Assembly (NCBI GenBank): GCA_964036155.1
Contig: OZ038422.1
Span: 18,437,201-18,501,200 of the forward strand
DNA length: 64,000 nucleotides
Direction: 5' to 3'
Source: Diploscapter coronatus
Lineage: Eukaryota; Nematoda; Chromadorea; Rhabditida; Rhabditidae
This document shows, in pieces, positions 8,301-41,000 of the stretch. Under the pieces are notes generated by a model that saw only the letters and a list, made by a program, of their open reading frames with translations, was not told the DNA's origin and ran no database searches. Position 1 is the stretch's first letter, and each line of letters begins with the position of its first letter. Position numbers and translations under genes: made by a program.

Positions 8301-13041
<4,741 letters not shown>

Positions 13042-15076: not shown

Positions 15077-17021
15077 TTATTGCCTGCTGTCTGTAGCTTT
15101 AATGCAAACTTGGCATCGGGAGACTCGCGTTCGCAAGTTACCCGACTTCAGTGTTTGACTTTCAGGGACCTGAAAATTAAATTTTTAAATAAGATATATC
15201 ATACTTTAGAATATATAAATATAATATAATTATTTTATGACGAGATAAATTTCTAATTTCACTCCGATTTCGATTCTAAATCAAACTGAAAATAAATCTG
15301 GCTCGTTTTTCTCAAAACTGGAATTCGAAATACACCAATCCACGTTTCGATAAAAATAACTGTCAATTTTGAATTCAAGAATATTACATTTCTAGTGTTA
15401 GCAAAATTTGGCCATAATGCCGGGATAAAATACGAATGTCGAAATTCGATTTGGGAAAGATAATAATTTCCCATTATTATTTTCAAATTTAAATTTGACC
15501 CGTGCTAAAAATCAATTTCGATCTCTGAAGTACAAAATTTGCTTGTATCAAAAATGTCTTTTTTGGTAAATGTTTACTGTTTTCAACATCAAACAAATAA
15601 AAACAAAGCTGACCTTAAATTCTTGATCATTGTCAATAGTCGTCAACCAGAAGGAGAATTTGTTGGCGAAGTAGTGACACGATCCTCGCGCTCCGTTACA
15701 TTCGATGAATGGCGTTGCTCTGAAGTCTTCCAGGCACGAGCCAGGAGAGCTGCAAATGGATGATATTGGCATTGAAAGACGGTGTTATTTGTTTTTGATT
15801 CTCTGGGTCCATCATTTTCCAAAGAATTTACCTCAACGATTGTCCGCCTCCCTCAGCACCAGCACCCGTGTGCATGGCGAATGAGTATCCGATCCAAAGG
15901 CTGTTCCATCCAGCAGGGCAGTTCGGGATCTGGATCGTCTGCGAGTGCACTGCGATCACGTTGGCAGGCGCCTCACAAACTGCGCATCTAAACATTCAAA
16001 TTGCATAATGATCGCGGAATATTTGAATCCCAATTTTTATGGTAAAGAAATGAAAGATTTGAAAAAATTACAATATTTGTGATCGTCGTCATATCTTTGC
16101 TATCTTAGTTTTCGAAATCAATATCCTCTCTTTTATCTATATTTGCCCGGTAGACTTTCTTGTTATTCTATCTCAAAAGCCAACCCTATTTTTAGACAGC
16201 AATGCTCCTCATCAATTTCTTCATCATTAGAAAAGAAAATTCCGTGAATCGAAATTGAAGATCTACCTCGAGATGTATGGCTGGATTTCTCCCTCGTTGA
16301 CAGGCATCATGGGAATGGGCGCTGTGGTCGAGAGCCAGTAGGATTTGTCGTTTCGACTGGCGTAGTTGCACACGTTGTTGAAATCGCAGAACAGGAAGGG
16401 CATCGTTGAGAATCGCTGGAGGCATGAACCCGCATGTCCTGCAAATCATATCATTCCTGGAGTAGATTATCATCGAATAGCATAAATAATGCTAATTTTC
16501 TCATTCTGTCTTTTTGTCCAATGCCGATAAGAGACGAGGAAAGGAGGCAACGTTTGGCATCCATTTCTTGTTTAATTTTAGCGCATTTGTATTAAGTTGT
16601 GAAGACCAGCTTCTTGGAAATTTAATCTTCAATGTTATTGATGTAATGCAGTATTTTATAAATCGAAGCGGAATAGTCTCTCAAAATTGAAGATTCAATT
16701 AGTTTCACTACTGTGGTATACTAAAGTTTAGGTTTTAATTGGATTTTTTAATTCGAATTTATTCGTTCTTGTTTACCGTTTCTTATATCCCTCTAAAGTT
16801 ATTTAAACTTCGACCAAAAAATCTAAAAATGAACTAACCGAGATCCTGGTTGTGTGATTTTTCGTTTCCTTCAATGTAGAGCAATGAGTATCCGTCCCAG
16901 AGTTTGGTGTGTCCATCGGGGCAGCGAGGGATGTCCGTGGTCTGTGAGTGCTTCACCAGCACGAAACCGTCCCTGTAGGCCGGGCCCGCAGGTCCAGGGC
17001 CACCGGGTAGACCAGGGGGTC
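15077..17021 (-). other. let-2: Collagen NC1 domain exons
   Basis: Five exons: 16839-17021, 16267-16438, 15832-15987, 15614-15749, 15077-15169, all GT-AG. The first begins with the last helix residues ([14 protein letters not shown]) and enters NC1 at [18 protein letters not shown]. Both NC1 repeats are present, with [14 protein letters not shown] / [14 protein letters not shown] and [10 protein letters not shown] / SRCQVCIK as matching pairs. NC1 drives chain trimerisation and head-to-head network joining. A short extra tail ATDSRQ follows the last cysteine motif. Confidence 0.95.
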
Positions 17022-20000
17022 CTGAAATTGAAAAATTATTCGGGTAATTTATTAATGGAAAAATTAAACTTTCAAAAAATGATAAGGCAGAAGCTTGGAA
17101 AGCATTTCATTTTTATGAACTTTTCAAAATCTATAAGTGTCGTACAATCTCGACTTTAAGATCATATCTAGCAGAGTATCGATACAATTCGAAAAAAGGC
17201 TCAGAGCCCTTATCCTTTTGTTATTCGAAAAATTAATTAGAAATAATGACATTTTGGGACAAAAATTCATATTAATTTTAGCTTGAAAAATTTTCAAGTT
17301 TCTGATCATGAGTTTTCGAGTCACGTAGTTTATAGAAACGATAAATTTTTACCAGGAGGACCCATCGGACCGTCCAAGCCGGGGAATCTTAAAACAGAGC
17401 CATTATTGGACGATATTGATCATTATTAAATTTTCGTTAGCATATTTGATCTCTTTCAAAACAGTGTTATTTTGAAGAAATTTGCATATTAGGAGTTAAA
17501 TACTCGAAATTATGTTACAAAAGGTATGTAAACTTATCTGGCAAGCCAGGCTGACCCTTCTCACCATTCAAACCTGGGCCACCTGCAAAAATAATGATTA
17601 ATGATGTTATATATATTTTAAAGCTAAATAAATTTAGAATTGAAGATCAACTTTAACATCTCAAAGCTTCAACAGAAACGCGATATTACATTGAGAGTTT
17701 AATTAAATTTAGTTTTAACAAGTTGGAAAAAATTCCCTAACCTGGATAGCCATCTCGGCCTGGGGCGCCATCAATTCCTGGAAGTCCATTCGGGCCTGGT
17801 GGGCTAAATTAGGCAGTTTATTTTCGGTTCGAATTTAGAGTCGTCTTAATTGAGATTATGCCTAATTTCAGATAAAACGCAATAATTCATTATATTACGG
17901 CATTTATAATTTGAAAATCATGCATCATCTCGATAAATCTCATAAACTTATACCCATCGAGTCCTGGCATTCCCTTCTCTCCTGAAAATTTACCATCATG
18001 AACATTTTCTGGCACAAAAATTTAATATTTGAACAAGGAATGCAAGTTATGTAAATGTTGAATCATGCTCAAAATCTGTAGGCAACTCCAACCGAACACA
18101 CTGATCACGATGATTAAGTCCGAAAACGCTAAAGGTCCCGAATAGCTCTGCAGCTTAGCTCCGAATTTCAACTATTCACTTCAACAATGCACCAATAAAA
18201 ATTCAAAATTAGCCTACATTGTAAAATTAAGCATTGGCAATGCCATTATTCGCTGCAGCAGCGAAGGGAAATTTGCACCCAAATTGCAGTACTATTTGGG
18301 ATCGTTAGCAATTTTTTGATTTGATTATCGTAATCGACGTGTTCAGTTTAGGTTATCACAAATTTTGAGCAGGACCCGTGATTTATATTGTTTGCATTCC
18401 TTGCAAGATTTAGAAGAATATTTTTCTTAGGCTGACTTTAAAGTACCACAAATAACTGACCTCTTATTCCAGGAACTCCTGCTGGGCCCATCGGACCTTA
18501 AATAATAGGTTTAGAGTTTCTTTTGCAGAATATATTTTAATGAAAAGCGAAATTCATTAAATTTGACAAGTTTAATGTGGAAAAATAAATAGCTAAAATT
18601 TTATGAAGCTAAAACTAGCATAAAAGTTACCTGGGGCTCCTGGTTGAATGATCGGCATCGGAGCAGGCTGTAAAAATTAAATTTTTAAATCTGCGATTAA
18701 TAAAATATCCCACCTGTCCTGGAAGACCGGGCTGACCTTGTTCACCTTAATTTTATTAATTGATTGGATTTTCTTCACTAATTGAATTCAACTTTTAAAG
18801 ACACATTATAAGTCTTTGGGAAAAAAATCGTATTTCAGAGAAATTATGAATCACCCTTCTGTCCTTCACGACCAGGAACTCCATCCAATCCGCGATCTCC
18901 CTTCATTCCCTGCAAATTTTAGCATTAATTTCAACTCGTTTTTGTCTTAACTATGGAGAATAAGCAATATTTTATTACTAACATATTTGGGTATTGCTTA
19001 CGCCCCAAAATATCCTGATAAAATCTCACCTCGAAACCGGGTTGTCCTAAGATTGTATTCATAAATGATTTTAATTTATTATTAAATTTAACTCTGACGT
19101 TAAAAGTTGACATTTCAACCTCAAAGTTAAAATTAACTATTCAAAATCATTTATGAATATCAGACCTGGAAGGCCGTCCAATCCTCGCTCGCCCTAAAAA
19201 AAAGTTGGATATAGCGAACATTACTTGAGTCTTGTAATAACAAGTTTAGTATTTCTAAAGTAAACTAAATTTCATAACATGAAATTTTATACCAAGACGA
19301 TTTTTGAAAGTTAATGCTATTTAAGTGATCTTGGCCGACAAACCTGAGGTCCTTGAGGTCCAAATTCACCCTTCTGGCCTGGCAATCCGGGCAAACCTAA
19401 ACATAAAATTATTTTCGAGTTTATAGTTGGTCTGGTAAAGATAGCATCGGCTAAAGATAAAAAAAAGATACAGATATGAATTCGAATTTAACCAAAAATG
19501 CATAAAATAATAAGTTTAAACTCACCATCTTTTCCTGGGTAACCTGGCTGACCGGGGGGTCATGAAATAGTAAAAATTAGGTTTAGAAATAATTTTTAAA
19601 AAAAAATATTTTTGCGAACTTTCTATCACATTAAAGAGTAAATATCATGAGAAATTTGATTTTCTAGCAGCTCTCATCTTAACTTCATTAAGGAACTAAT
19701 TATCATAAATCCTACCTTGTGGGCCTGGGAATGTTTGGCCGGGAGCTCCGGGAAGTCCGTCCAATCCTCGTTCACCCTAAACTCAAATTGTATTACTAAC
19801 TGCAAGGCTATCTGTGAGTTTTAGCTCGTTTCTAAGTAAGTTAAAATTTAAACAGTCCAAATTTTCTTGGCCAACAAACTATTTTATTTTCAGATGGTTC
19901 ACCCACCTTCTGGCCAGGAATTCCGGGCAATCCGGGCTGGCCCTGATTACCAGGATAACCACGTTCACCTATAATTTAAATTAGCGCATATTTAGTAGAA

Positions 20001-23000
20001 TTGTTGAATTTCAGAGTGAGTCAAAAGTTTGAAAAAATTCAAATTTTGAGAATTGGTACAGTACGTTCTTTGTCAAAGTTTCAGTTGATTTTAGGTATAA
20101 TTTAAAGTGAGGACACATAATGAACTTGTTAAGAATTTTTTTTTTTAAATCGAAATTCATAGATTATCATTCAAATACTATATATAGTTTGAAGATGCTT
20201 CCAAACTTTCAGCGCACTTTATACCGTAAGCAATAATACTTTCATCAGAAATAAAAAATGTTTTTAACCACCAACCTGGGGCGCCCTTCAAGCCGGGGAA
20301 GCCTAAAATAAACATGGTTAGACTGATTGAACCAGATTCATACATTTTTAGTATCATTTAAAACTCGCTATAAGAATTATTCAAAATTATTGTTCACGTT
20401 TTAGAATTACTGAAATGATTTTAAACTCTTACCTGGAGCTCCATCCATGCCTCGCTCACCCTTCTGGCCTGGGTATCCGTCCTAAATTAGGGGTTTTTAT
20501 CATCAGTAAAGGCTTAATTAGAATTACCTGTCCACGTTCGCCGGGCAGACCTAGGCAGAATTGTTGGTTTATCGTACGAGAAATTTAAAACAGCGATTTT
20601 TTGTTTTAATTCAACAAGATAATAGTTTAGAATTTCTCGTATAATAAACTAAATTTTCTACCTGGCAACCCTGCGTCACCCTTCTCGCCTCGCAGTCCAG
20701 GCAATCCTAAAAATAGATTGTTAAAATCAAGTTCTGTAAGGTCAAATTGATCATTTTTAGGATAAATTGACTAAATATGGTCCGAAATTTTTACCTGGTG
20801 GACCTTCAGGCCCAGGAATTCCATCTCTGCCACTGGGTCCAGGCAATCCAACTTCACCCTTAAAATAAACAACTTTAGAAACCTTCAAATTTAGAGTCGA
20901 TAAAGACGATATCTAAATTAGTTAAAGTTGACCTTGATGCCAGGAAGACCGGGCGCTCCTGAAATAATCAATTTATGGTCAAAATCCAGTGCTAATTTAT
21001 TTCAACCAACCGTTTTCACCAGGATAACCAGGTTGACCCCTCTCGCCCTGAAAATACATTTTTATGACATTAGATTACGCTGAGTTTAAATTTCGAATTT
21101 AATAAATGGTCAATTCTTCCATTTTTGCATTTCTACTAAATAAATTCGTCGATCAGCCCACCTTCTTTCCGGGGATTCCTGAGAATGGGAATTAATGAAT
21201 ATCGTGAAGATCACAATATTAAAAATTCGCAAAATACAGTTTTCAATAAATAAAAAGCGAATTCTTGATATTGATCGTTTGTGATATCCGTTAATTACCA
21301 GGAAGTCCACTGTGTCCTAAATTAGAAATATTAGGATGAATTTTTAACCTTTATTATCAATTTTTTATTAAAAATATCGAGAAAATTTACCTTTCGGTCC
21401 AACGGTTCCTGGAAGTCCAGGAAGTCCTGGTTCGCCTAAATTTGATTGATTATCTCGAGTTAATTTTTCCTGACGAATTTTGATTGTTAGTGGAAAATCT
21501 TGTTATTTTAATTATCTTCACAAAATAATTAAGAATCGATAAAGAAATTTAACATCCATAGAATGATACGTTCGGCAAAATGCTTCTTACCTCTCTGGCC
21601 TTGAACTCCTGGAAGACCTGGATTTCCCTAAAATTGAAAGAAATGGTCAAATTGTTCGTCTTTGTCTAGGAAAAAATTCTCCATCGGAAGTAAAACCAAC
21701 CTTCATTCCAGGATAACCCGGATTTCCTGAAATAAAATATTAGACTTTCTGTTAATCTCAAGATTCTAAAACCTGGCAATCCATCAAGTCCATTTCGGCC
21801 TGGAATTCCTGCTTCTCCCTAAATTTGAAATATTATTACTCTTAAATACTCAATTATTTTGAACTAGAAAAGGTAATGTAAGCTAAAGTTTTGTATTGAT
21901 AAATTTGCAATATATGATTGCTAATCGATATACCTTCAAGCCAGGAACTCCTGGCGATCCTCTAACGCCTTCCAAACCAGGCTGGAATTAAATTTACTGT
22001 AAGTTTAATTGAGAAATTAACGCTAGCAATTTCATATAGTTTCCATTTTATTTCATTATTAAACTTCAATTTCATTGCTAACGTCGATATTCGAAAAAAA
22101 ATCGCCAGAAAATTCAAACCTGTCCAGGTAAGCCGGGCAAACCTGCAAAAATTCATTAAATTTTGTTTGATTGATTAATTCTAGCAATACTGATCAATTT
22201 ATAGCTATGAGAAAAAGCCTTGTAAAAAATTATGTTTGAACAGTAATGCTTCAATATTAACTAAGTAATAACACACCTGCGTCGCCTTTCGCTCCAGGGA
22301 GTCTTAAAATTCAAAGATTATCCTCAAGTAGTAAAAATAAATAATAAAGTCAGACGGTATTAACTAATTTCAGTTTTTTTTCTGGCATTAAAAATGAATT
22401 GGTTGACTACTTGCATTAATACCGACTGCTGTGATTCACTTTTCCAGTAATTCTTTATATTCCAAACTAAAACTTATCTGGCATGCCGGGCGCGCCTTGT
22501 TCACCTTTGGGTCTTAAAACGGAATCATTAGACTTTGAAATAAATGCGTTTAAGAGATTTACACGCTGTCGGATTCGTATGTAAGTTTGACATAAATTTG
22601 TACATGACTTTTCACCCAAAATTCATTGTAAAGAAGTTAAAAATTGATTCAGAGGGTATAGTATGTGTAAGGTTAAGGATAAACCCCTTAAAAATCCTGT
22701 TATGTGTCGGGACAATATAAAATTCAATACAGAAAATTTTTGGAGATCAAAATCGAAGTCAAGATCGATTTCCGTAATCTCAAAATCGTTCCCTCCAGGT
22801 AATAACATTACCCTTCTTTCAAATTAGTTTCGATGGTTTCAGAAAAGTCTATACCATCATAATAAATTTGAATCAACTCAAATCACCAATTTAGTTCTAC
22901 AACTATTCTGCAAGAAGTACTTGCGAGATTAACCATTATGCCTCTGCATCTCTGCCCCTCTTACCCGCTCTTTCACCCTTCGCAGATACGCGTTGAACCC

Positions 23001-26000
23001 CTCTCTGCAATCTATTATCTTGGGGACAATAGAAAGTATATTCAATGACAGGGTCAGACTAAAGTGAATATTCAAATTCCAAGCTAAAGAATCAATTCGA
23101 AATGTTCCAAGAAAATAATTGCAATTGTGATAAACATTTTCGACAAGCTTGGCTAAAATCCTCATTAAGCTTTCACTAACTTTTCATTCGAAAAGATGCC
23201 CATGTGATTCCACATCTTCTGAAATCGATTATGAAACTAGACTGGTTTTATGAATATTTCTGTCTAAATTGGGAAGTTTCGAAACTTGGTTTTGAACTGA
23301 TACATAACTTTCTCGAAACTTGGCAACATTTATGTTCGAATTCCTCAAGCATAATCGCCGCAGAATGCGGAAAGGGGTGTAACAGCCAAACTTGTCGTAG
23401 ACGCTCTTAACACTAGCTTGACCTTGAGTGGAGTGCCAAATTGAGTGTAGTCACGCCTTTGATTCTTTTATTTCCCGTTCGTGTTTGCACGTTTTTTCAT
23501 GTGCAGTTTCATAATTTCTGGAAAAATCGGTTTCGAAGTGGTGATTTCAAACCTATTTTTAGCAAATTCTTGCGTGAAATTTGCCAGGAGTCATGTAATG
23601 GAGCACGCGCAATTTGGGCACTCAACATGATTCGAACTCGACTCCAGACATTTGCAGTGTTCAGCTTCTCCTATATAAGCCCAAGCAGGAGTCAGTCAAA
23701 CCATCAACTCATTGAAGGCTCTCATTCCTTCTACAACTTCCAAAACTCCCAAAATGGCCAAGCTGTTCGTTCTCGTCGCCTGCCTCGTTGCATCTCTCGC
23801 CCTCATCGTAGAAGCCAGCTACTACCACGTAAGCATTACAGATCCAGACTCGATATTCTATTCTTGAATTAATGATTTTAGAAGGACTACTACCAAAAGG
23901 ACTATGGGTACGGTTACGATAAATACAGCTACACCCCCAAGAAGTACTATTCCCCGAAGAAATACTATTCCAAATCCTACGGATATGAGGTCAGTCATTG
24001 AGACAATGAACTTCAAAGTAAAAGAGTGCTTGCAGAAGAAAGACTACTACTACTCGAAGCCATACTATGGTTATTCGGACTACTCGTCCAAGAAGGACTA
24101 CTACAGCTACTACTGAACAACACCAACTGTAGTTCTAAGATAGTCATAGTTTGAACTAGATCTAATATTATTTCTAAGCAGATAAAATAAATATTTTTCT
24201 CACGATAAACTGTCGTACTTTTTGAACTGTTGCAATAGCACAACATAACACAAAATGCTTGCTTTGAATAATCAAATTAGCCTTTTTAGAATCATAGAAA
24301 AGATTACGAATATCGAAACATGAAGAAATTATGGCATACAGTGGCGAGCAAAAGCTTTGCATCGCCGCTAGTTTTTACCGAAGAAAAGCTAGGAAATTAG
24401 ATTCCTTCACGTTTACTATGAAAAATAGTGGAATTTATTTTATATTTAGAAACTATTTATCATAGCATATTCGACCAGTTTGTTTGGTTATTGAAAAAAT
24501 GTTCTTAAAAATTTAGAATTTCCTTAACTATTGAAAAACAAAGAAAATTGTCGATTTTTCAGTTAAAGCCACCTTAAATTATAAAGATGTTTTCCGGGGA
24601 TAGGCCAATTTAGGATATAATGTCTATATATAAGGGCTTTCAAATGCGTCATCAATCAACTTCTGCATTTACTCACATGGACCTATGGAATTTTTTGAAA
24701 TCGATAAATTTTCGATTTTCTCGCCTGATAAAATTTCTCAAAAATCCATAACTTCTATAAATGTGATCGAACCGGGCTGAAACTTGGTAGATGGTCATGA
24801 TATATTCATTACAATATGCGTACAAAATTTTAGCCGGATTGGTGCACCACAAGTGGGTGAACCAGCATCATATCAAGATGTATGAGGTGATGCAAAACTT
24901 TTGCTCGTCACTGCATAAATGAACGAAATTGCTTGCGTTTGATTTTCTTCAACATTTTCGAATAGAAAATAAGGGATTGATATTTCGAAAGAAAGTCAAA
25001 GCGGATATAAATACACAACTTGCAAAATTGTTCGAATCCAAATTCGGTAGTCTTTTCTGAAGAAATTTTGTACGAAATTCCGATTTAAATTATGCATTTA
25101 AAAGTCATTTCGCTTATCCTGGGCCGAAGGTCTCGAAAGATTTATATATATATTTTTGAAAGATGAAAACAATTTTCTGTAAATCATGTTGAAAGAATAA
25201 TATGTTTTCTTCCGAAAAGTTAAATTGGGAGGGCTTTTTTAAAAGATTCGCAATCAGGGACTAGAGAGAACTCTATTTCTTCATCCAAATTTTGTTCTTA
25301 TTTCGATAAAGTTCAGACAGATTTCGAAAAAGGAGGCTAATTCCATTTGACTTTCAAAAATGTGATTTCGCTTTAAAGTGGGAAAAAATTCGCTCAAAAA
25401 TAGAGATAATACCTCTTAATGAAATTTATTAAAAAAAAAAAAACGAAATCCAGAAATAAATGCAGAATTGATTTTTAGCTGTTCTCGCGAATTTTGAAAA
25501 AAAAAAACATAAAAGCGCAATCCCCGATCTTTTGAAGTCCTAAATTAGAAATGGCAGGGTTAGAATTGCACGATATTTATGGATTATCCTAAATTAAAGG
25601 AAAAATTTTCAAACAATCGTCAAAAATAGTTTCCCAAGTTACACGAGTGCTATTAAATTCAATATCGATATTGTATTGTAACTCTTCGCTATTCTGAAAG
25701 TTCAAGAGAAGTAAAAGGAATTTCATTTTTCTAGCATTTTACGCAACGAAATCTCATGGTCATCGAGATTCCCTCCAATTAATTTAATTGCAATTTTCAA
25801 AAGTTTCATGCTGACGATCACTTACTAGATGGTTCATTTGCAATTTGACATTTTCACTATTTCTAGACTGAAGTGGTTTAACAGTGCATGGGGCATCGAA
25901 ATTTTGGCAGGAAAACTTATTTTCGACTGCAAATTTTGACGCGTAGTAAATGATGTCGCGAGTTCCGATGATTTGAACCGAACGTGAAATGGTTTTCCTG

Positions 26001-29000
26001 CCGCCTGAAGTGAGTTGTAACACAAGCACTTACTAAAGTATTGACTAATGCGTAATGCGTAATGCGCGTATGCCTCAAGTGAATGACCTCGAAAAAATAT
26101 TACCTAACTAGGGCCTATGAAAATGCGCTCTTCTGCTTCTCTAATGTTTCCGTACCTTGAAAGTGTGCGCTATCGTACATTTCGACTTTCTAACATGTAT
26201 TTTCAGTAAAAAAATCTGTAAAACTCTCCAGGGCAATTAGTCATTTCACGCATTTCAACACTAACTCGAAATGATCGGTCTTCTAATTTTTTCTCGTCTC
26301 TTGCTCACACTATATAAGTAGATATGAAGCTTGGAGAAGAACTAATACTCCAAACCAACTCTAAATCATCATGTCCAAATTTCTCATTCTACTTCTATCC
26401 ATTGCCATTATTGTTGCCATATACAATCTATCAGTCGATGCTCAAAAATACTACTTCGTAAGATTTTATATTGTTTTCTCACATTTTTGTGCTGATTTTC
26501 ATAATAATTAGTTAATTTCTTTCTCACTTAGCTTCTTTGGGATAGATGATTCGTGACATGACCCGAAAAATATCAATTACATTTTGCACACACTCACATA
26601 TCACTTAATTTCAATTTTTCAAGAAGGAAAACGATGAGTCTTCCTATTCAAATTTGCAAAATTATGAGAAAATCGAATAATTTACGATTCACAAATAATG
26701 TAAGTATATTTTTCAGAAGGAATATTTCCCAAATAAATTCAGTAGAAGACCTTCTCTCCAGGATATGATCGATAACATGCCATCTTATCTTAAACTCGCG
26801 CAAGAATAGAATTCAGCATAATTGCATTTTAGTTGATTGGTCAATAAAATTTTATTTTCTTAATTGAATTGAATTTCTAAGACAACTAATGACACTTGAA
26901 ACATTCTCATAAATTGATGTGAAGAGGGACGTCGGATAATTTAATCACATAGAAAATTCTTAGGATATTTTTCTATTGTTATCGAAAAGCTTTGGTTTGT
27001 AAAGAAATCATTATTTTCAGGAAAAATCTCGCTCGGTTTTTGCATATTACTTCAAATTGATTCTAAAATTTATTTTCTTATAATTTAGTCGTAGATTTTT
27101 TTTGCATAAAATTCTATTTCTCTTAAGTTAAATAGAAATTAAAACCGAGACGATTTTGATATGTTGAAAATTTACTTTGCATTTTAACTCGATTTTGATT
27201 TTCGACTAGCTCATGATAGGACTTTAATTTCTAATTTCAAAATTTAACTCTAAAATATTAGTTAGCATTGTTCTAGATCTAATTCTCATACTTCCACCCT
27301 TTCTATCTTCAAATCCCAGGTAAATGGTAACTTCCTAATCTTTTCAGTTTAAATCCGTGGCCAGTGAGTTAAAATGGGATGAAAATATTCACTTGTTGAA
27401 CTCTCAACATTCAACAATAGCTACTCCTTATTCTGGGGTGCAAACCACTTCACGGTTGAGTGTCATTGCAGTTTTCACTTATGAGAAAAGCTGACTATTC
27501 ATGCGAAAAGATATTCTAATAAAATTAATGCTATCAATATTTCAGAAAATAATCCACATGGATTAAGCCCATAGGTCGTTCATAATTCTTCAAGAATTAT
27601 TCATTTTACCCTTGAAAAATCGACGATAGTAACTCTACTGAGCCCGACAACGTGCATAATGATTGAAAAATGGACTTATCTGGAATTCCGGGCAGTCCTG
27701 CGATTCCTGGCAAGCCCTTTTCTCCTGGAATTCCTGATGATCCTGGCACTCTTAAAATTGAATCATTAGGAATTGTTTGGGATTTATTCAAAAAATTTCA
27801 ATACTTATTAGTGGCAACCGAAAATTTGGAATCTAACGTGACTTTTTAAAATTTATTCTAAAATGATTCTTTTTAAATAATTTTTCTTGACATTTGGCAG
27901 ATGTTCGCCAGAAAGCCCCTTACATGTGTATCAAATTTGAAAAGAATAATTCGATCATTACAAGTCAATTGACGCTTTGTGTTAAAATAAAGCTTTTGTT
28001 CCAAATTATGCTCGCCACTGTATACTTCTTTGGCAAAATTTAATTAAAGTTTTCATTATAAAAAAAAATTAGTTTGAATAAAATCAAAACTTATCTGGTT
28101 GGCCAGGATAACCACTCTCGCCCTTCATTCCAGGTAATCCTGAAAATTTAATTGATTAATTTCATAAATTAGGATTCAAGATATAATATTATGAAACTGT
28201 TAGGATAGGTATTGATTTAAAACATAAAATTTTTACCTGGCATTCCATTTTGGCCGCGCTCACCCTGAGGTCCCATGGGTCCGATATCGCCTGGGGGACC
28301 CTGAAATTTTATTTTAGTAGAATAGTATCTCAATTTTATCGTATAGCTTATGAACCGAGGCTACTCTTTCCAAAATTATGGTCTAACAAAATGGACAGAA
28401 TTTGAAAGTTATTTTCTTTCCGAAAAAAGGTGTTTAATAAGATAATATTATTTACCTGAGGGCCATCCAAACCTGGCAGACCTGGCTGGCCAGGCTCGAG
28501 AATGTTGGCTGGTGCGGGAAGTCCAGGCAAACCTTGCTCTCCCTGAAATATTTAGATTTTAAATGATATTTTAGCTGAATATGTAGTAAATTTTGGTAAA
28601 AAAGATCCCTTCTTAATCTCTCATAACAATGATAATTTGATAGTTGGAAAAACTTACGGGCAAACCGGGCATTCCATCGTTTCCTCGGTCTCCTAAAATT
28701 TCAAGAATTAGCTTCTAAAATATAGCTTTTTTTTAAAAGAATATTGCACATGAAGCAGAGATAATTCGATTAGGAGTGCAAAATAAGTACGATTTTATTT
28801 TGAAAAATTGCCATAATTTTATCATGATTTTCAACCGACCTTTATCGCCAGGAATTCCAGGCATTCCGGGTTGACCATATCCAGCTTCTCCTTTCAGGCC
28901 TAAAATTGAAAAGATGACTCTTTCTTTCTCTCAAAAATATGAGAAATTAGGCAGTAATAAATGTTAAACTTATCTGGCATTCCAGGAAGTCCATCTTGTC

Positions 29001-32000
29001 CTAAATTAAAATAATTATTCAATAGTGTTGAAGATATTATTTTCTCAGCGATTTTATAACAACACATAAAACCGGCCAGAAAAGATTCTGATAATAATCA
29101 CCTGGTTTTCCCATCAGACCAGGCAAACCGGGCTCGCCCTGAAATATTTTTTTATGATTTAAAATCAGCTAATCGACCCACTTTTTCTCCAGGATAGCCC
29201 GGATTTCCGGGGGTACCCATCGGACCTTAAATTGATCAATTTGAGACCGTATTTTTTTATCTTAGATAAATTGTCAAACCTAATTTTTTTTTTTTTTTTA
29301 ATTTATCGAATTTTTGATTTAAAGTTAAAAAGGAATATACAATATCTTAGGCTACACTTTAATAATTTAGAAATTAGAATTACCTGGCGCACCACTCAGC
29401 CCATCTTGTCTTAAAACAATACCATTATTTAGGTTCAAGATAAATGTTTAAGTTAGTTTGAATGGATACTACAATTTAGGAATTTCCCATTCGTACTTAG
29501 CTATTACCGTTATGAAAAAATCAGAAATTCAGATTAGAATTAAATTTGTTAGTCAAAAGATAGGCTTAAAAGAAAACTTATCTGGAAGTCCAGGGAAGCC
29601 GGCTTCTCCCTTAAATTCATTAGTTAGTTTTAACAGGTTTCGACATAATTTCAATGCCAAGATAAAATAATTGAAAATATTAAGATATGAATTTTAAAAT
29701 ACCCACCTTAGCACCCGGATAACCTGCAAGTATATTCATAGTTGTTTTAAGCTAAGAATTAACTTCGGCTTTAAAATTTACTTTAACTCCAATATTAATT
29801 CTTAGGTTAAAACAAGAATGAATATCGAACCTGGTGGTCCAGGTCGAAGCGTCAATTGAGTCGGCTCTCCTTTCTGGCCTAAAATTTGATGTTGAACAAT
29901 GACCATATGAACAAAAATTCGACTTGAAATTACACTGCATAAATTAAATAAAGATTTCAAGAAGCTGATCTTCATCGATACGAATCTCAAATCGAAATTA
30001 ATTCATTGAAAATTTACCTGGCAAACCGGGGAGACCGTCGATTCTTAAAATAAAACGATTAGATCATTGAAAATTTTGCAAATATTCTAGAACTTAAAGA
30101 TCTTAAGTTAATCTAAGATACTCAAATCGATTAGGTGTTGGTATATAAATTGAAATAAAACATATCTGGCGGACCAGGAGCACCAGGACGTCCTAAATTA
30201 GGATTGATTAGGAAAATGTTTGATTATTTTTTGGTAATATGAAACTTCATAAAATTTTAGATCCAAAGAAAATGCTCATAAGTTAAAATGAATAGAAAAT
30301 TTAATTTAATTTTTTGAAAAAGTTTTACGTGAAGTTTGCAATGAAACGTCATTGCGCATATCTCCAGTCATTATCTTTCAAAGCATCTATAGAATTTTAA
30401 CATAATTTCTCAAAAATCTAACCTGACGGACCAACCATACCGTCGTCACCTGGATCTCCTTGAGGGCCCGGAACTCCGGGAAGTCATGAAATTAAAAGTA
30501 TTAGGATTTTAATTTTATTAATAATATTTTTCTTTAAATTTGCATTTAGAAAATCAAAAGTACGGCAATTTTCGGCTAAGAATGAATTAAAACTCGAGCT
30601 CAAAAAGAACCATTCGTAGTTTTTTACATTGAGGATTTCGGCAGTATGGGTTAAGTTTTCGAAAAAAAAAATGTTGAAGTGCGAGTCTTCAAGTCCTTTC
30701 AAATTTAAGACTTTTATAAGTAGGAAAACAGTTAAAGCATGAAAAAGGAGCTCTAATCGAAAATCTTCGTTATAAAGATTGTAAAAATCGTTGGTTAGTT
30801 TAGATAAAATAATTTACTATAAGGTATTTTTTAAAAATCTACCTCGATCGCCTTGAGGTCCAGGCTGTCCAGGATAACCGGCAGAACCTAGAGTTTAATT
30901 GATTATGGTCATGTTTGATCGATATTTTCATGATGTCATGATTTTAGCACCGAAAAGTAGCGTGAATAGTCAAATTTCTATAATAATAACTTACCTTTCT
31001 CTCCCTTCATTCCTGGACTGCAAACAGAGCAAGTGCCACCGCGATCACCCTTCTGGCTTAAAACAGAATCATTAGATTAAATGGTGTATTTTAAGTGATT
31101 TTTTCAAGTTACTAAATTCTTGGATTGAAAAATCTTCAAATTTGAGATTTAAGAAAAGTAGATAATTTATGAATAGAGATGCCAAATGAACTTTCGGAAT
31201 TGATAATCATAAGAAATTTTGGTATTAGGATGATCGGCGAGATTAACTGGAGCAGAATACTTTTTAAATGTCCGAAAGTGGCCTAGTGGGAGCAAAGTTA
31301 TGCCCATAATTTTCGAGATACCGGGGTTGCGATGCACAAAGTTCACGATTTTTGAGTTTTGGAGAAAGTTTCAAACTACAAAGCTTGAGAAAGAAATCCA
31401 TAGTATATTATACAGAAACAATGTTCAATGATTATCAATTAGGAATTTGATTAGATGAGTCGAAAAAGTGATCGAAAATTTCTAGCGCATAATTCGAATG
31501 TTAATTTTAGCATTCTGGCATTCCTATTTATAAACAAGTAAAAAACTTATCTGGTATTCCGGGAAGACCTAGAATTCACTCATAAATGATTTTACACTGG
31601 AAGTAAATTTAAATTTGCAGTTAAAAGTTTTAACTGCAGATTTAAATTTAAACTCGAGATAAAATCATTTATGAATTCGAGACCTGAGAGACCGTCGCGA
31701 CCATCGTAGCCTTTCGGGCCCTGAATTTTAAATAGATAAATAGAGAATTTCCAAATATTTTATAATGAATTTCATGCAAAAATCAGCCTATGTGGTTAAT
31801 TCATTTATAGCTAATTTCTCATATTCAAGACTTCAAGAATCAGTTAGGCGGACATCTAAAGATTAAATTAATTTTTAAATCCTACCGGTGGGCCTCGGGG
31901 ACCTGGGGCGCCTAAAATAAATTCATTAGCTAGTTTAAAAATTGGAATTTAGCGATAAATTCAGAGCCAATATTTTAGCGATTGATGCTATCGCAGGTTT

Positions 32001-35000
32001 CCTTAAATTGAGTATAATCTTGTACCTGGAAGACCGTTGAGCGAATCTCCGGGAGGACCTAAATTATTCTGCTTAATCAGATGAGGTAAATTAAAATAAT
32101 TTTGCACTATGGAAACGTCGGAAAACGGGAAGTATGCATCTGTCTTACACTATTTCTCCTTACTCCCGCTCTCTGATATATCCCTAGCTGTGTTCCGACA
32201 TTCGGATTTTCCGTATTCCAAATTGCCAAATAGTTTCAGTTCTTAAATTTTTACCTCTAACGCCGGGCAATCCTTGTTCACCCTTTCTGCCTGGGGCACC
32301 GTCCAAACCTAAAATAATTCATGATTTCTGACCGATAAAATGCTGTGGCTTTGATATAGTTCTTATTATCTTTATTTCGGCACTTAATATCTATTTTTCT
32401 AGCAAACTCTTTACCTGGTCTTCCATCCTTTCCTGGAATTCCTGGGATCGACTGACCAGGAGTGCCTCGGGGTCCCGGTTCTCCTGAATTTAAAATATTA
32501 GGCTTTTAAGGGGACTAGACTTTAATGTAGAGATTCAAAGAAATCAATTCCATCCATTTTCACTTTTTCCCAATCACAACATTATTCGGGTATTTCGAGA
32601 TTGGCAAGATATCGATTTGACCATAATACAAAAGTGATCTTCATTTATTAGTTAGTCATACTAAAAATTACCTTTCGGTCCAGGAAGACCTGCAAGCAGA
32701 TTCATAGATGGTTTAAACCCAGATTAAAAATTTTTAAACTGGGTTTAAATCGTCTATGAAAGTCGAACCTGGAAGTCCTGGCGAACCTGAAATTGAACGA
32801 TTTAGCACTGATAAATTTAACTAAAGAGTTGCTGATGATTAGAAACTGTTTGGCAAAATTTGCAGCACTATTGAAAATTTGAAATCGATGATTAAAATAC
32901 GGGGTGTGGAGCGATTTGTTGGCAAAATTGCGAAGAATTCCCTGTAAACTTGGTTACAAATTGACCCACACCGAAAATATGCTTATCGTCAACAATAAGA
33001 TTTTATGTATGCGAGAACTCACCCGCTGTTCCAGGATAACCCGGATTACCAGCATCACCCTTAAATAAATTAATTTGGAATAATATGTGTTAAGTTTTTA
33101 ATTGATCAACAACTCGTTTTGAGTGAGAAAATCTTTTAGATTCTATAAGTGATTATTGAAGATAAAAATTAAGGAAATTCTAGCAACAACTATCAATAAA
33201 TTTTGTTAAGAAATGGCAAAATTTAAATATAGTTAGTAAATTTTTAAATGAAAAGATATTGGGAATAAATATTGCTTCTCTATAGCCTAAATTATAACTT
33301 TGAATTTAAGTTGAATTTTTCTCATTGTCAAAACTCTATCTTCCTAAAATCTCACTTCAATTTAATTTCTGATTTTCTCTTATTGATCCCTGAAGATCAT
33401 CATGAAAGTTTTGAGGATGCGAGCTAAATTGCTCACAATCGACACTGCAATGCGCTATTTATTATCCCTGAGAGAAGTAGAAGCAGCAACTGACTGCCAG
33501 ATATTAGTTAGAAAGGGAGCGGCATCACAGTGAAGCGCAGAATATGTTGAAAAAAACTGACTATCAGAATGAATGGATTACAACTCATCAATTCACTCGG
33601 AACGACTGACAAAGAAATGATCTACTCGAACGCTAATCGATACTGGTTTAGAGAAATTGAATCAAAATTAGAGAAAATATGTTATTTAAACAGAGCTTCT
33701 CGGGTTTTGGTTTTTTTTCGAAACTCGGAATAGGAATTCCGAGCAGCTCTGATTATAAATCAACCTACCTTCTCTCCTCTTTCGCCGGGCAATCCTTCAT
33801 TTCCAGGCATTCCTAAAATTAGTCTATTGAAATGGGTGATGATAGAATATTTGGCTCAAAGTTATCTAGAGATTTTGAAAATTGTCAGAAACTCGAACAT
33901 GAATTGACAATTACAGCGAAAAAGCCAGGGGTTTTTGATTTTCTTTGAAATTTCCTTGCCAAATTAGCGCAGGCAAAAACGTTCTAAAGACTTGAATATT
34001 ATCTTCGACTATGAAAATTCGATCATTTTGCATAATATCATTTCATTTGGCAATAAATTTGAGACTTTACAGCGCAATTTTTAACGAAAAAAGCGGATCA
34101 GATTTTCTTTCACGAGCCATGTAACTTAGGATTATTTCCATCGATTATTCAAATCCTAAAATAATCAATTCGCTTACCGGGCATTCCGTTTCCGCCTGGC
34201 AAGCCGACTGGGCCTGGGGGACCCTAAATTAGGCAATTAGAATGTCGTAATATTCACTAGATTGATTCATAATTTTGGCACAAATTTTTCTTGTTGATAT
34301 CAAAATAATCATAAGATTTTGATGCTATAAATTAACTTACTTGTTGGCCAGGATAGCCATCATTTCCTGGGGGTCTTAAAATAGATTTCATTAGCTTAGA
34401 ACAGATAATAATTTGCTTTAATATTCAAATTATCGAAGCGAATGGATATTATTTCGAAAATTAAAAGGAGAAAAAAGTTTTATGCACCCATTATCTGATA
34501 ATGTGAACTCAAAGAAAATATCATCTTATTTCAAAATAGAAAAAAACGCGTTTTTCTAAATGATACGGTACTTTCGAATATCGGATAAAAACTTATCTGG
34601 ATTTCCAGGTCGTCCGGGAAGTCCGGGGGGTCATGAAATTACACGATTATAAATTATAACAAATTTTTAATTTAGATACTCAAATTTTGAACCGAAAATA
34701 TAAAAATGCAAAATTGTTCGAAAAATGTAACGGCTTTTTGCGAATGAAGAATAATGCTAACCTGGTGGGCCATCAGAAACCATGTTGCCGCCAGGAGGAC
34801 CCTGCAATCTCAACCCATCATATATCATAGTCGATTTAATCATGAAGTTAAATTTAAATTTGTGGTTGAAATATGAGAAGATTATTGTTGAATCACAAAT
34901 TTAATTTTAGCTAATAGACAAATTCGATTATGAATATCGGACCTGAGGGCCTTTGTTTCCTTTCAATCCTTCACGACCAGGATATCCAGCCTCTCTGAAA

Positions 35001-38000
35001 TCAGAATCTCACAATGGAATAAATTCAGATTAATTTAATCACATTATTTTCTTATAAAAGTTGTTATTTATAATCTAAAAATTTTACCCCTTCTGTCCAG
35101 GCAAACCAGCGAGTCCAGGAAGTCCATCCAAACCTCGGTCTCCTAAAAAATTGAATTTAATTAGGATTTAAATTGCAGTTTAGCGATATTTTTTCCTATC
35201 ATTTTCGATAGCGCAAAAAATCGACATTCGTAAATTGATTGTCATTGATATAGACAACAAAAAAATTACCTTTGAAACCTGGAGGTCCTGGGGCACCTAT
35301 AATTAAATTAATTGTTGTTTAGCCAAAGTATTTATACTACTAATTTATATATACACACACACAAATCAAACATTATATTAGTGGTTTCAGTATCGATCAA
35401 TATTCTGGATTGAAAAGATGGTAGATTATTAAAATTTTAGTAAACTCCCAACCTGGTCTTCCTTCTTTTCCTCGTGGACCAGCGGGGCCGCTCAATCCCT
35501 TCTCGCCCTTCATTCCAGGCAAACCGGGCTGTCGTAAAAATTTAGTTCGTTAGAATTTGTGATCAATCTCGTTATTTTAGAAAGTGAAAATCTCGATATT
35601 TTACTAGCGAACTTGATCATAATCAAATTTATACATACAGCAAAAATTGCTTTGAAATTTTTTAGAAAGTTTGAAATTATTTTTTTAAGACTCATCTGGA
35701 AGACCTGCTCCTCCTGGGTAACCTCGAGCGCCCAAGTCTCCGGGCTCTCCCTGAACAAAATAAGATTAGTGAATTTGAAATTATAATGAATGAATGAAGC
35801 TTCAACTAAAGGGCGTGAATTAGGGCGACTAATCTACTTTTGCATAAATAATATTACAAACTAAAATGATTACATGCTGCTGCCAGATATTGTGTCCGTC
35901 CGATTATTTGATGAAATTGAAAAATATCGCATTTTGACCGTTTAAATGAATGATCATTTCGCAGATGCACACATGCATATTATTTGATGACACGTCTAAT
36001 GGATAAAATGAGAAATTATCATCAAATAATGTGCATGTGTGCATCAGCGAAATGATCATTCATTTGAATGTTCAAAATTCGATATTTTCAATTTCATCAA
36101 ATAGTCGAATGCCTACAATAATGCTTACATACACTCTCGCAGACCGATTTGGAAGAGACGTAATGACAGAATGACGTTATGCGAAATGACGAAACGTAAA
36201 AATGACAGAATGCTTCTTCCCATTCACAGTTTCTATCAGTTACTACTGCGCTTCGTTATTTTCGCGTTTTGTCAAATTCAGGAAAGTGTTTCGTCGTTTC
36301 GGATTACGCAAGTTCGCCATTACGTCAAATCCAGGTTGTCCTCTCGCAATCTCTACTTACTAGTTTATAATCAACCTAGTCAATCTACTGTCGATTACCA
36401 AATATTTTCCTAAGTGTTAGTACACTCTACTAATGCTAATCTAATAACTAAATAAAGCGTAATAAATCATAAAATGTTATTTAGCTCTAAAATTAAAGAA
36501 AGAAATCTGCATATTTTGTTATTCTAGTCTATTATTGCAAAACTACTCTATGAAAACTACTAATTGAAGCGTGATCAGCTTTAACTAAATTTGGCACGCG
36601 AATTTTTCTGCCAAACCTTCTCTCCTTTCTCGCCCGGGTTTCCTCTGTAATCATATTCATAAACTAGATGACTTTTTTTTTATCTGATAAAAATCAACTG
36701 ATGTCTACTTCAATGTTGAATCTACTCTAAAAATAGTCAAATAGTTTATGAATAAGTTCAGACCTGGGTCCGATCAGGGAAACCTTCTGTCCTTCGATCG
36801 GCAATGGGCCGGGACTACCGGGAGGGCCCATAGGCCCTGGTTCGCCCTATATTTGGAAATATTAGTCGGTAAATGAATCACCTTTTCTCCTTTCTCCCCA
36901 GGGTTGCCTCTCGGGCCGACTATTGATCCAGTGCCACTAAACTCTCTCGGACCAGGAGGCCCTGGCATGCCTGGCGGCCCAATATCACCCTGTGTGTTTG
37001 ATCGATTTATCACAAATTATGCGATTCTATATCAATTAAAAAACCAATTGGAAGTAACTTAATGTCATTAGGAATTGCTTCAAATTGAGATTTTCCTGAT
37101 TATGGTATGAAACTTGGCTCTAGATATTCACAAAATGGTGATAGGCTAAAACTGTTTGAACGAACTCATTTAGTAGAAACTTTCTAAATTTAGGCACGAA
37201 TTTCAAACTTTAAGGCTGAGATATACGTTAAAGTGAATCTAATGATTTAACCTCGCATAATTTGTGAATAATCTTGGAAAAGAAATTTCGTTTCTATTCT
37301 GAAATTGTTTACTCATTCTCCCCTTCCTGAAATGAATGCATTCAGGGTACATGAACAGATTATGTCGATTACATTTGGTCATGAGCATTAGACGAATGAA
37401 AATTGAAGCTAGAAAAATGAGAGTCAGGGCCAAGTTTTGATCAAAAACAGAATAGCGCATATCAGACTAAAATTGAGCTCTAAGTGATTCAAATTCAGAA
37501 ATAATGAGCAATAAGTATAGAAAGTTGTTGTAAAGATTTGCTGTATTATTATTTCTAATTAATTCAGATTCTTCATGCCAATATAAAAGGGTTAAGCAGT
37601 GTCAAATTCTAATGAATCAGTAAGACAAAGATGAAGATTGGAAAAAAGTCCATGAAAAATTGTCTATTCATGTACCCGAATTAAAAATAAATGAAGTCAA
37701 ATATAAACTCACGGGTTCTCCTTTGGGACCAATGCTTCCGATTCCAGGATTTCCAGCCATTCCAATATCTCCTGGAGGACCTCTGGAATCAGGATCGTAA
37801 AATACTTAACCTCCTAGTGTATCAAAATTCCAAGATTAAAATTACGAAAAATTAATTTTAATCTCGAAGTTTCCTTTAACCCTGATGGGGTTAAATTGCT
37901 TATGATTAACCAACCTCGGGCCCTGAAAATTGTTCAATTATTAATGAATATTCGGAGAATAAAAATTTAGTATAATTTAATTGAAAGATACAGATAAAAT

Positions 38001-41000
38001 CAATTTTGGAAATCAGAGATTTTAGGAGTTCGAATCGATATATTAGTCAAATTTAAAATATCACATACAGGGAATCCGGCGTCTCCTCTTTCTCCTTTTG
38101 AGCCAGGATAACCATCTCTGCCAGGGGGTCTTGAAAATAGAATCATTAGGTCGTGAATTCGAGGTAGGCATTTTAAATATGGACGAAAAACTTATCTGGC
38201 AGGCCGGGCATACCTAAAGTTGGAAAATTATTGAATAAAGTAGTTTTAAAATTAATTTTGAGAGCAATAAAAACTAAGTTGCAGTCAAAATGGTCTTGAT
38301 AAATCAGTAAAATTTACCAGGAACGCCGCTGTTTCCTTTCTCGCCGGGAAGTCCTGAAAAATGATGATAAATCGAATAAAACTCTTTTCGGTTCATTTTT
38401 GAAAATTTACCTGGTGGTCCCCAAGCAGGCTCACCAGCGTCACCCTTGTCACCAGGGGTACCAGGGAAGCCGGGTAATCTATATTGAGAATATGCATTAG
38501 ACAAGATGAACTAATTATGAAGTAAAAATGCAATACTACTGATCAGATAGGTGAAGAATAATTGCGTTTTTCTTTCAAAGCATAGTGAAACATTTCGATA
38601 GATTTTTCCAGCGAACTAATGGCCAAACTTACCCAGGCGGACCCATTCTACCGGGGATACCTGAAATTTTAATCATTATTCGATGTTCTCAAGTTATAAG
38701 TGATCAGTTTTTTTGCTTATACAAAATTATATTACAAACGAGCCTTGGTCTTTGCTTCGCAAAAGCTCCAAAGCGAATAAATTTCAAATCAAGCACAGAA
38801 ACAAACAATAGTCGATAACAAACAAAAATAACACAGCTATCCCCCTCGCTCATTCTTTTCGATAATGATCAATTCATATGCAAAGCTTTGCCGTTTATGA
38901 ATTTCCAATTCGAGACTAATCTGCTAATTTTGGATACAAAATTAGTCTGTATAGAAGAATGAAAGCAGTTTTTTTTTTTACCACAAATTAGCATATATCT
39001 AACCAAAACCGATTTGGACTTTTACGTTGCCACCTCCCATTAAATTACCTATCTAACTAGTGCTGAAAACCGCATCCCGATCCAATAATCACATCGCCAG
39101 AGCTAAGCTTGGACAACACACAAACAAACAGACAAACCCAACAAAAATACTAATTGGTTAGACTTGAAGATCTTGAAAAATTAGACCAATTTTCCTATTT
39201 ATCGTGATTTAACTAAAAATTTTAGAACTGTTAATATCTCACCGGGAGCGCCGTCAGTTCCGTTGCAGCCATCCCAGCTAAAATAGTTCTTTATATTCAA
39301 ATTAAGCAAGATAAACTTACCCAGGGGCTCCTGCAATCCATTTCTATAGTCGTTTTAAATCAGAAGTTAAGGTTAATTCTAAGGTTAAAATAATAGATTT
39401 TAAACTCAGAATTAACTTCAACTCAAGGCTTAAATCGACTATCAAAGTCCAAACCTGGAGGACCGGGCTCTCCTAAATTTTTAAAAGATTATGATCGAGT
39501 AAATATAAAATATTCTTTAATTCAATTTAAAGGCAACTCGTAAATGTCGTGATGCCATGATATCGTAAGCTATCGTTCAGACACTATTTCGCCTTACTTT
39601 CCTTCCCTCTCTTATCCCTAATTACAGCACATATCCTCACAACATCACAACATTTACGAATTGTCAAATTTAAATAATTTTTAGAGTATCAAATGTCGAT
39701 ATTGTTTCGCTTTAATTAAAAAAAAAGAAAAGAATTAGATTATAAATCTCACCAGGTCTTCCATTCAGACCATCAGCTCCGGGGAAACCAGGAACTCTGA
39801 ATAAAAATTACTAGATTAGATAATGAACATATTGGAAAAATATAAATTTGCAATTGAGACTTGGTATAATAAGACACGAACTCTTTGAAACTTACCCGAT
39901 TGGGCCCCTGTCTCCTTTGATTCCAACAGGACCGGGGGGACCTAAATTTCAATCGATTAATCTTTGGGATTATTTAGGCTTATGATAAATGTTATGATAA
40001 GAAAATTCTCACCCATAGCTCCTTTTTGACCCTTCGGACCGGCTAAACCTTCAGGTCCAGGAAAGCCGCGAATTCCCGGCGATCCGCTTGGGCCTTGGGG
40101 CCCAGGGGCACCCTTAAATGGTTTATTGTAAGTTAAATCTAGGGTTGTTGATGTTGATCATCTTTATTTTATAAATTTTAGTAACATTGAATTCAGCTAG
40201 AGTCAATATTTCGACGTACAAATTATCTGGGCAATTAAAAAAATATTTAGAATTATTGAACACCTTAGTTAAAGAAAATAACACCTATACGAGAGAAGAT
40301 GGAGATAATAATTTTCACGACAAAACAGATTGCGTGAGTCTTTGGTAATCATTCTCAATAGGACTAATTCAAACGAAATATGGGAAGATGCAAGGTATTC
40401 TATTTGAATTGCTGGTATGGTTCTTAATTTCATTACTTGAAACATCTACTAGTAATTCTTGCATTTCGTTCCACATATCGATTATCGTAACTGATTATAT
40501 TCTTAGATCAAGATTCAGGTCCGTAAAGAACTCAAAGGATTTTTCATATCTGTCAAGTTGATAATAACTTTTCCCTGAAAGTCGAGAGATTAGACTTCAC
40601 ATTTTTGCTGCACCAAAGTCCGGAAGCTAAAAGATAATACCGAGTGGCACATTTTTACATCGCTACCAAAAAAAATAAAAATTTCGTGCGAACTGCGAAC
40701 AACTGTCTTTGGATTTTTCTTTTGATGATATGAAGAATGGGGCCAATCCTCATAGTCGAATTTTTCTTCAAAGCCAGCTTTTGGGTCATGAAAATAATGA
40801 AAAAGTTGAGGCTTGTAATTTTGATCGCATTGTTGGTAGACACAAGTAAAACAACTCAAGTTTCAAGATTCTTGATCCACAAGATATTATTGATTCAAAA
40901 TGGCATATCGGCAAAGTGAGTGAAATTTAATCTAATGAAAATACCCGATAGTTTTATTAGAGAATTATAAGCTGATCGATAACGAAAAATAACATAATAA

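What the first reader, a model, noticed from the sequence alone, without database searches (positions are those of the whole stretch)
19047..39454. Family of hairpin introns resembling introners
Seven GT-AG introns (19047-19165, 29724-29830, 31569-31683, 32690-32768, 34802-34942, 36645-36763, 39331-39454) share edges: donor side GTYYGATATTCATA, acceptor side TATGAAT...TTGCAG or TAG. Arms pair over much of the intron (up to about 50 bases in 31569-31683). All sit after AG in the exon. Related sequence, terminal inverted repeats and exact coincidence with introns are what DNA-transposon-derived introners look like. The stems would also bring the splice sites together.
Basis: partly seen in the sequence, partly recalled or inferred. 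Interest (0 to 1): 0.9.

Follow-up and report, generated by a model that had tools for sequence, protein, structure and literature searches.

The report
Transposon-born introns in a nematode
A worm genome (likely Diploscapter) carries a family of look-alike predicted introns, likely more than a hundred per chromosome set and eight of them in one collagen gene, which were likely planted by a small DNA transposon that would make its own splice sites when it inserts at CAG; this would give a visible source for new introns in animals, where most have none.

Summary
The seven listed introns are hairpin GT-AG introns on the minus strand of one type IV collagen-like gene; an eighth lies at 37783-37914. 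They belong to a genome-wide family with edges CAG|GTAYCANATTCATARRCGATTTAA ... TTTAAAACRACTATGAATNTGATTNCAG|R. Edge matches over both haplotypes: 233 against 5 control (donor), 278 against 6 (acceptor). A profile built only from 22 introns of other genes finds six of the seven, and the C2 allele of the eighth. In 33 of 33 curated copies outside the window the intron holds an in-frame stop; three of ten joined junctions tested pass a Pfam cut-off. The ends are inverted and the target is near-palindromic, CYNYCAGRNRG, centred on CAG, as a DNA transposon with a 3-bp CWG duplication would leave; the second CAG would be the 3' splice site. One paralogous gene lacks the intron but keeps its neighbours. 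Against: all 16 alleles tested and all 8 window introns are on both haplotypes, so insertion is old; the CAG repeat cannot be told from splice consensus; no parent transposon was tied to it; no related species or RNA was available; the stems show no covariation. A likely introner family, new to nematodes as far as my searches show.

The parts
19047..19165 (-). family intron, 119 nt, phase 1, hairpin of 46 pairs
   Evidence: found by outside model R2, E 1.9e-9; on both haplotypes
29724..29830 (-). family intron, 107 nt, phase 1, hairpin of 40 pairs
   Evidence: R2 E 3.2e-9; both haplotypes
31569..31683 (-). family intron, 115 nt, phase 1, hairpin of 44 pairs
   Evidence: R2 E 3e-9; both haplotypes; my gene model mis-joined this one as 31013-31683
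32690..32768 (-). family intron, 79 nt, phase 1, hairpin of 27 pairs
   Evidence: R2 E 7.7e-6; both haplotypes
34802..34942 (-). family intron, 141 nt, phase 0, weak hairpin (z -1.4)
   Evidence: R2 E 1.8e-8; both haplotypes
36645..36763 (-). family intron, 119 nt, phase 2, hairpin of 43 pairs
   Evidence: NOT found by R2; its acceptor edge matches the family consensus without mismatch (C1:18473838) and it is in R1's training set; both haplotypes
   Evidence: found by R1, which was built without it, E 0.0073; not found by R2 on C1, but its C2 allele is, E 5.1e-5; both haplotypes
39331..39454 (-). family intron, 124 nt, phase 1, hairpin of 43 pairs
   Evidence: R2 E 4.5e-11; both haplotypes
16978..40115 (-). 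host gene: Gly-X-Y exons of a type IV collagen-like gene, rough model of 84 exons, some wrong
16263..16439 (-). best stretch of the C4 (NC1) domain that marks the gene as type IV collagen-like
   Evidence: PF01413, E 6e-32 in the read-through translation of 12000-17000 minus; coordinates converted by me

Best explanation
The seven introns and an eighth at 37783-37914 are copies of one genome-wide family of predicted introns, which likely arose when a small non-autonomous DNA transposon inserted into exons at near-palindromic CYNYCAGRNRG sites. Shown: shared edges in unrelated genes, inverted ends, CAG at the insertion point, a two-sided target motif, and in-frame stops inside all 33 curated copies. 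Inferred: the 3-bp CAG of the target would be duplicated, the left copy staying as the last exon bases and the right copy becoming the 3' splice site, while the element's own end would supply GT, so that splicing restores the frame. Also inferred: insertion predates the split of the haplotypes, interiors then decayed, and the edges stayed because splicing needs them. A CWG duplication would place the parent near the NuwaI group of the PHIS (PIF/Harbinger-like) superfamily; this last step is the weakest.
For: Edge counts far above the reversed-pattern control: 233 against 5 and 278 against 6, 219 against 68 and 1244 against 358 with looser patterns. Model R2 from 22 introns of other genes finds six of the seven listed introns at E 4.5e-11 to 7.7e-6, with no other place below E 0.07 except their mirror hits. 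33 of 33 curated copies hold an in-frame stop; in the longest open frame 31 join to 36 or more codons. Of ten joined junctions, RRM, SNF2 and tyrosine phosphatase pass the Pfam cut-off across the junction; C2 is just below it. Inverted ends TCANATTCATA / TATGAATNTGA. Target: C at -7 32/69 and G there 4/69, Y at -4 51/69, R at +1 59/74, G at +4 34/74, symmetric about the A of CAG. A paralogous RRM gene is contiguous at the site of copy L101 and keeps the introns on both sides. NuwaI elements have CWG duplications (PMC4482050).
Against: No polymorphism: 16 of 16 loci with a readable C2 allele and 8 of 8 window introns are on both haplotypes. CAG on both sides is also splice consensus, and no longer duplication exists. 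The one empty paralog reads CAA where the filled copy has CAG, so it does not show the duplication, and loss of the intron fits as well. Against a half-real acceptor control, R at +3 is hardly raised (53/74 against 52/81) and G at +4 only moderately (34/74 against 21/81, P 0.012). None of the 42 one-mismatch rows listed follows CTG, although a symmetric transposase should leave such copies in non-coding DNA. The element would begin GTA, not the usual GGG of NuwaI. No transposase with these ends was found; no RNA and no other nematode was examined.
Confidence: 0.74

Rival explanations
1. The family likely spread as RNA: excised introns would be put back into other transcripts by reverse splicing at CAG|R proto-splice sites and then copied into the genome.
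For: All recognised copies sit at CAG or a near variant (29 of 36 CAG); no CTG row among the 42 one-mismatch rows listed; the exon joins without change in length.
Against: Reverse splicing does not predict inverted ends or a target signal at -7 and +4.
Confidence: 0.1
2. The introns are likely kept as functional RNA hairpins: the stems would bring a weak donor and the acceptor together, and the shared edges reflect selection rather than descent from a transposon.
For: Ends change less between haplotypes (12/479) than the ends of 56 other introns of the gene (175/3299, P 0.0065) and than their own middles (31/452, P 0.0016). Donors GTAYCA and GTYYGA lack the usual GTRAGT.
Against: No covariation: across 21 of 39 copies with both end motifs 242 pairs are kept against 239.3 when shuffled; of 26 allelic changes at paired bases 13 keep and 13 break the pair, none is double-sided; the 22 outside introns have no consensus fold.
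Confidence: 0.08
3. Old introns were likely invaded by a miniature transposon that now fills them, so that no intron was gained.
For: Other introns of the same gene do hold unrelated hairpin repeats inside larger introns, e.g. 39473-39752.
Against: The conserved edges begin at GT and end at CAG (copies were curated by these signals, which weakens the point); one paralog lacks the intron entirely but keeps its neighbours.
Confidence: 0.08

Closest known systems
Introners, intron-generating transposable elements (PMC9860276: abstract, section 7 and passages read)
   Same: Many similar introns in unrelated genes; inverted ends; a duplicated target that supplies the 3' splice site, as described there for Chrysochromulina (4-bp duplication).
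   Different: Here a nematode, with a CAG (3-bp) core. That survey's main text does not name nematodes and reports introners in only two groups among animals and land plants, both animals. Here the copies are old and diverged rather than near-identical.
NuwaI transposons, PHIS superfamily (PMC4482050: passages read)
   Same: CWG target core, inverted ends, mainly in animals.
   Different: NuwaI ends usually begin GGG and lie in 16 animal genomes with no nematode listed; here the end would begin GTA and no parent was linked.
Novel introns of Caenorhabditis (PMC9169325: section 13 and passages read)
   Same: Intron gain in rhabditid nematodes.
   Different: That study found no source sequence for its 168 novel introns; here a repeated source family is visible.

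Membership tests
Introners | Many introns of similar sequence at non-homologous positions in different genes | tested here: met
Introners | Copies are spliced introns | tested here: inconclusive
   33 of 33 curated copies hold an in-frame stop and 31 join to 36 or more open codons; no RNA data
Introners | Positions gained, absent in relatives | tested here: inconclusive
   One paralog without the intron; 16 of 16 readable alleles and 8 of 8 window introns present on both haplotypes; no related species held
Introners | Terminal inverted repeats and/or target-site duplication (a feature of the DNA-transposon kind, not of all introners) | tested here: inconclusive
   Inverted ends met; CAG on both sides fits a 3-bp duplication but equals splice consensus
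NuwaI (PHIS superfamily) | 5'-CWG-3' target-site duplication | tested here: inconclusive
   Target centred on CAG and symmetric; the empty paralog does not show a duplication
NuwaI (PHIS superfamily) | Ends usually beginning GGG | tested here: not met
   Ends would begin GTA / NAA; the source says 'usually'. Not filed as a member
NuwaI (PHIS superfamily) | Autonomous copy with DDE transposase and Myb/SANT protein between the same ends | tested here: inconclusive

The most novel reading that the evidence does not exclude
A nematode introner family: a CWG-targeting, PHIS-like miniature transposon seeded hundreds of introns into the genes of an asexual two-chromosome worm and explains part of the extreme fragmentation of its collagen genes. 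Each insertion makes a working intron at once, because the target's duplicated CAG becomes the 3' splice site, and only CAG-oriented insertions survive.
Probability: 0.58. Interest if true: 0.88.

Novelty: new member of a known kind. Interest (0 to 1): 0.8.

Why it matters
Where new introns come from is an old open question. A large survey found introners in only two groups among animals and land plants (PMC9860276), and a nematode study found no source sequence for 168 new Caenorhabditis introns (PMC9169325). A visible source family in what is likely a close relative of Caenorhabditis would make intron birth testable in a tractable worm: empty sites can be sought in sister species and splicing of the family can be measured.

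Tried and rejected
CAGGTYNGATATTCAT with 2 mismatches: 1267 against 294 control, but of 42 loci read (two exact, 40 one-mismatch) I recognised only L072 as a clear member, so I do not use that excess. BLAST with one whole intron found only itself, its allele and their mirror hits. Rfam: no match in the window. Target-motif controls: the ordinary-donor control was no better than its reversed pattern (21 against 27) and is not used; the acceptor control is about half real (81 against 36), and against it G at +4 is 34/74 versus 21/81, P 0.012, R at +3 is 53/74 versus 52/81 and R at +1 59/74 versus 48/81. Consensus fold of 22 outside introns: no pair. A duplication longer than CAG: not found. Rows dropped: 100 listed donor rows became 69 and 100 acceptor rows 74 after requiring CAG and collapsing near-identical flanks; the 36 curated copies are 35 of the 60 loci plus L072, the other 25 being left out for unclear edges or as collagen copies; three second alleles were then dropped, leaving 33. 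In one search the longest open frame was taken, which can be the wrong one. Part of the output was cut; one search showed some of the missing loci.

Literature: searches were seen as listings (one search found none). PMC9860276 was read as abstract and outline, section 7 and passages; PMC9169325 as section 13 and passages; PMC5483258, PMC4482050 and PMC11139335 as passages. No supplements were read. The library holds open-licence papers only, so a report elsewhere would be missed. That Caenorhabditis is a close relative rests on PMC11139335 and PMC5483258; the usual GTRAGT donor is recalled.
Full report
What was checked. The seven intervals are introns of the minus strand. They lie in one large collagen gene whose Gly-X-Y exons run from about 40115 down to 16978 in a rough 84-exon model, followed by a C4 (NC1) domain, so the gene is type IV collagen-like. 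The genome (G000) has 169.7 Mb in three contigs; two, of 87.7 and 82.0 Mb, are homologous, and over the window the long aligned blocks are 92-95% identical. That fits Diploscapter, with two chromosomes and 5.7% allelic difference (PMC5483258, passages); the name is my inference.

Hairpins. Among 76 introns of the gene model of up to 400 nt, the five lowest z-scores are listed introns (-10.6 to -6.4); 36645 has -4.0, the eighth member -3.0 and 34802 -1.4. Two other introns, 20551-20661 (z -5.4) and 21179-21298 (z -3.6), are hairpins without the family edges.

A family beyond the window. A covariance model of 13 sequences (the seven, four C2 alleles, and one intron of another collagen gene on both haplotypes) found the eighth intron at 37783-37914, which was not in its training set, at E 0.0073. 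Fixed edge patterns then showed a genome-wide family: 219 against 68 (donor) and 1244 against 358 (acceptor), sharpened to 233 against 5 and 278 against 6. These are counts of edges on both haplotypes, allele pairs and duplicated genes included (for example the collagen copies L133-L137). More than a hundred per haplotype follows from the sharp patterns; several hundred is likely from the loose ones.

Same family. To avoid circularity I aligned 22 family introns from other genes and searched the window with that model, which has no base pairs. It returned 39331, 19047, 31569, 29724, 34802 and 32690 (E 4.5e-11 to 7.7e-6), with mirror hits on the other strand for five of them, and nothing else below E 0.07; on C2 also the allele of 37783 at E 5.1e-5.

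Are they introns? The 36 curated copies were chosen for a recognisable GT edge and CAG edge, not for reading frame. After dropping three second alleles 33 remain: all hold an in-frame stop; in the longest open frame 31 join to at least 36 codons and two to 32 and 35. Of ten joined junctions sent to Pfam, three pass the cut-off with a match across the junction (RRM, SNF2, tyrosine phosphatase); C2 falls just below it; two had weak scores and four none. The C2 junction matches phospholipase C delta-1 and the SNF2 one DDM1. No RNA evidence was available.

How it likely works. The edges give inverted ends TCANATTCATA ... TATGAATNTGA. Flanks of 69 donors and 74 acceptors from two separate searches give C-Y-N-Y-C-A-G-R-N-R-G: C at -7 in 32/69 with G in 4, Y at -6 in 48/69, Y at -4 in 51/69, R at +1 in 59/74, R at +3 in 53/74, G at +4 in 34/74, each at P of 4e-4 or less against exon composition further out. 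The motif is a palindrome about the A of CAG. The control from ordinary acceptors is poor (half real) and weakens the right side: G at +4 still differs (P 0.012), R at +3 hardly. A palindromic target with a 3-bp core is what a DNA transposase would leave; CWG is the duplication of NuwaI elements (PMC4482050). The inferred event is insertion at CAG, duplication of CAG, GT from the element's end and AG from the second CAG. CTG would not give a working intron; none of the 42 one-mismatch rows listed reads CTG.

Age. Every allele that could be read on C2 carries the intron: 9 loci, 7 of the 9 loci sent (L112 and L116 had no C2 match) and 8 of 8 in the window. Ten of the 28 loci stayed untested in this way. 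Insertion therefore predates the haplotype split. One empty site was met: a paralogous RRM gene at C1:73233112 (and C2:68387416) is contiguous through the site of copy L101, with no change in length, and keeps the introns on both sides. It is not a retrocopy. It reads CAACAG where the filled copy reads CAG|CAG, so it does not itself show the duplication, and gain in one or loss in the other both fit.

The stem. The eight window copies change less at their ends (12/479) than in their middles (31/452, P 0.0016; another alignment gave 32/452) or than the ends of 56 other introns (175/3299, P 0.0065). Yet pairing shows no covariation across 21 copies and no double-sided change between alleles. I read the conserved ends as splice signals plus transposon remnants and leave a role of the stem open.

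What is not settled. No other nematode was available; the parent transposase is unknown; the CAG repeat cannot be told from splice consensus by itself.

Verdict. I file this as a likely introner family, a new member of a known kind in a phylum where none turned up in the titles and abstracts that my searches listed, and I leave the NuwaI link as a lead.

Noticed in passing
window minus strand, starts at 38195, 34596, 30165, 29581, 28094, 22477, 17537 (also 35695, 31550, 28973, 27679): Eleven places read CCAG|AT(A/G)(A/T)G. In seven, an intron read as AT...AA restores a perfect Gly-X-Y register (CCA G|ATAAGTTTT...TTTTAA|GA), while the GT-AG reading leaves a PD(K/M)-like interruption each time; by eye 35695 would fit AT-AC. 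Possible AT-AA/AT-AC introns; needs RNA.
   Followed up: partly
window 20551-20661 and 21179-21298 (minus strand): Two more introns with strong terminal hairpins (z -5.4 and -3.6) but other edges; perhaps another intron family.
   Followed up: no
window 39473-39752: A long hairpin repeat, MITE-like, lies inside this larger intron.
   Followed up: no
L154, L155, L156 (C1:53476027, 62692119, 79351809): PF13359 transposase copies found on C1 only, in 3.4 kb stretches 99.97% identical to each other: likely recent movement after the haplotypes split.
   Followed up: partly
L118 (C1:24600596-24600727) and C2:23135024-23137171: The C2 allele of this family intron has about 2.1 kb between the same exon flanks, against 130 bp on C1: something inserted inside the intron.
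   Followed up: no
genome G000: CAGGTAAGTWT-type donors are no commoner than the reversed control pattern (21 against 27), so the donor consensus of this genome may be unusual.
   Followed up: no
L133-L137: Several near-identical collagen gene copies each carry a family intron with edge GTTCGCGATTCATAAACG or a near variant, so part of the copy number comes from gene duplication.
   Followed up: no
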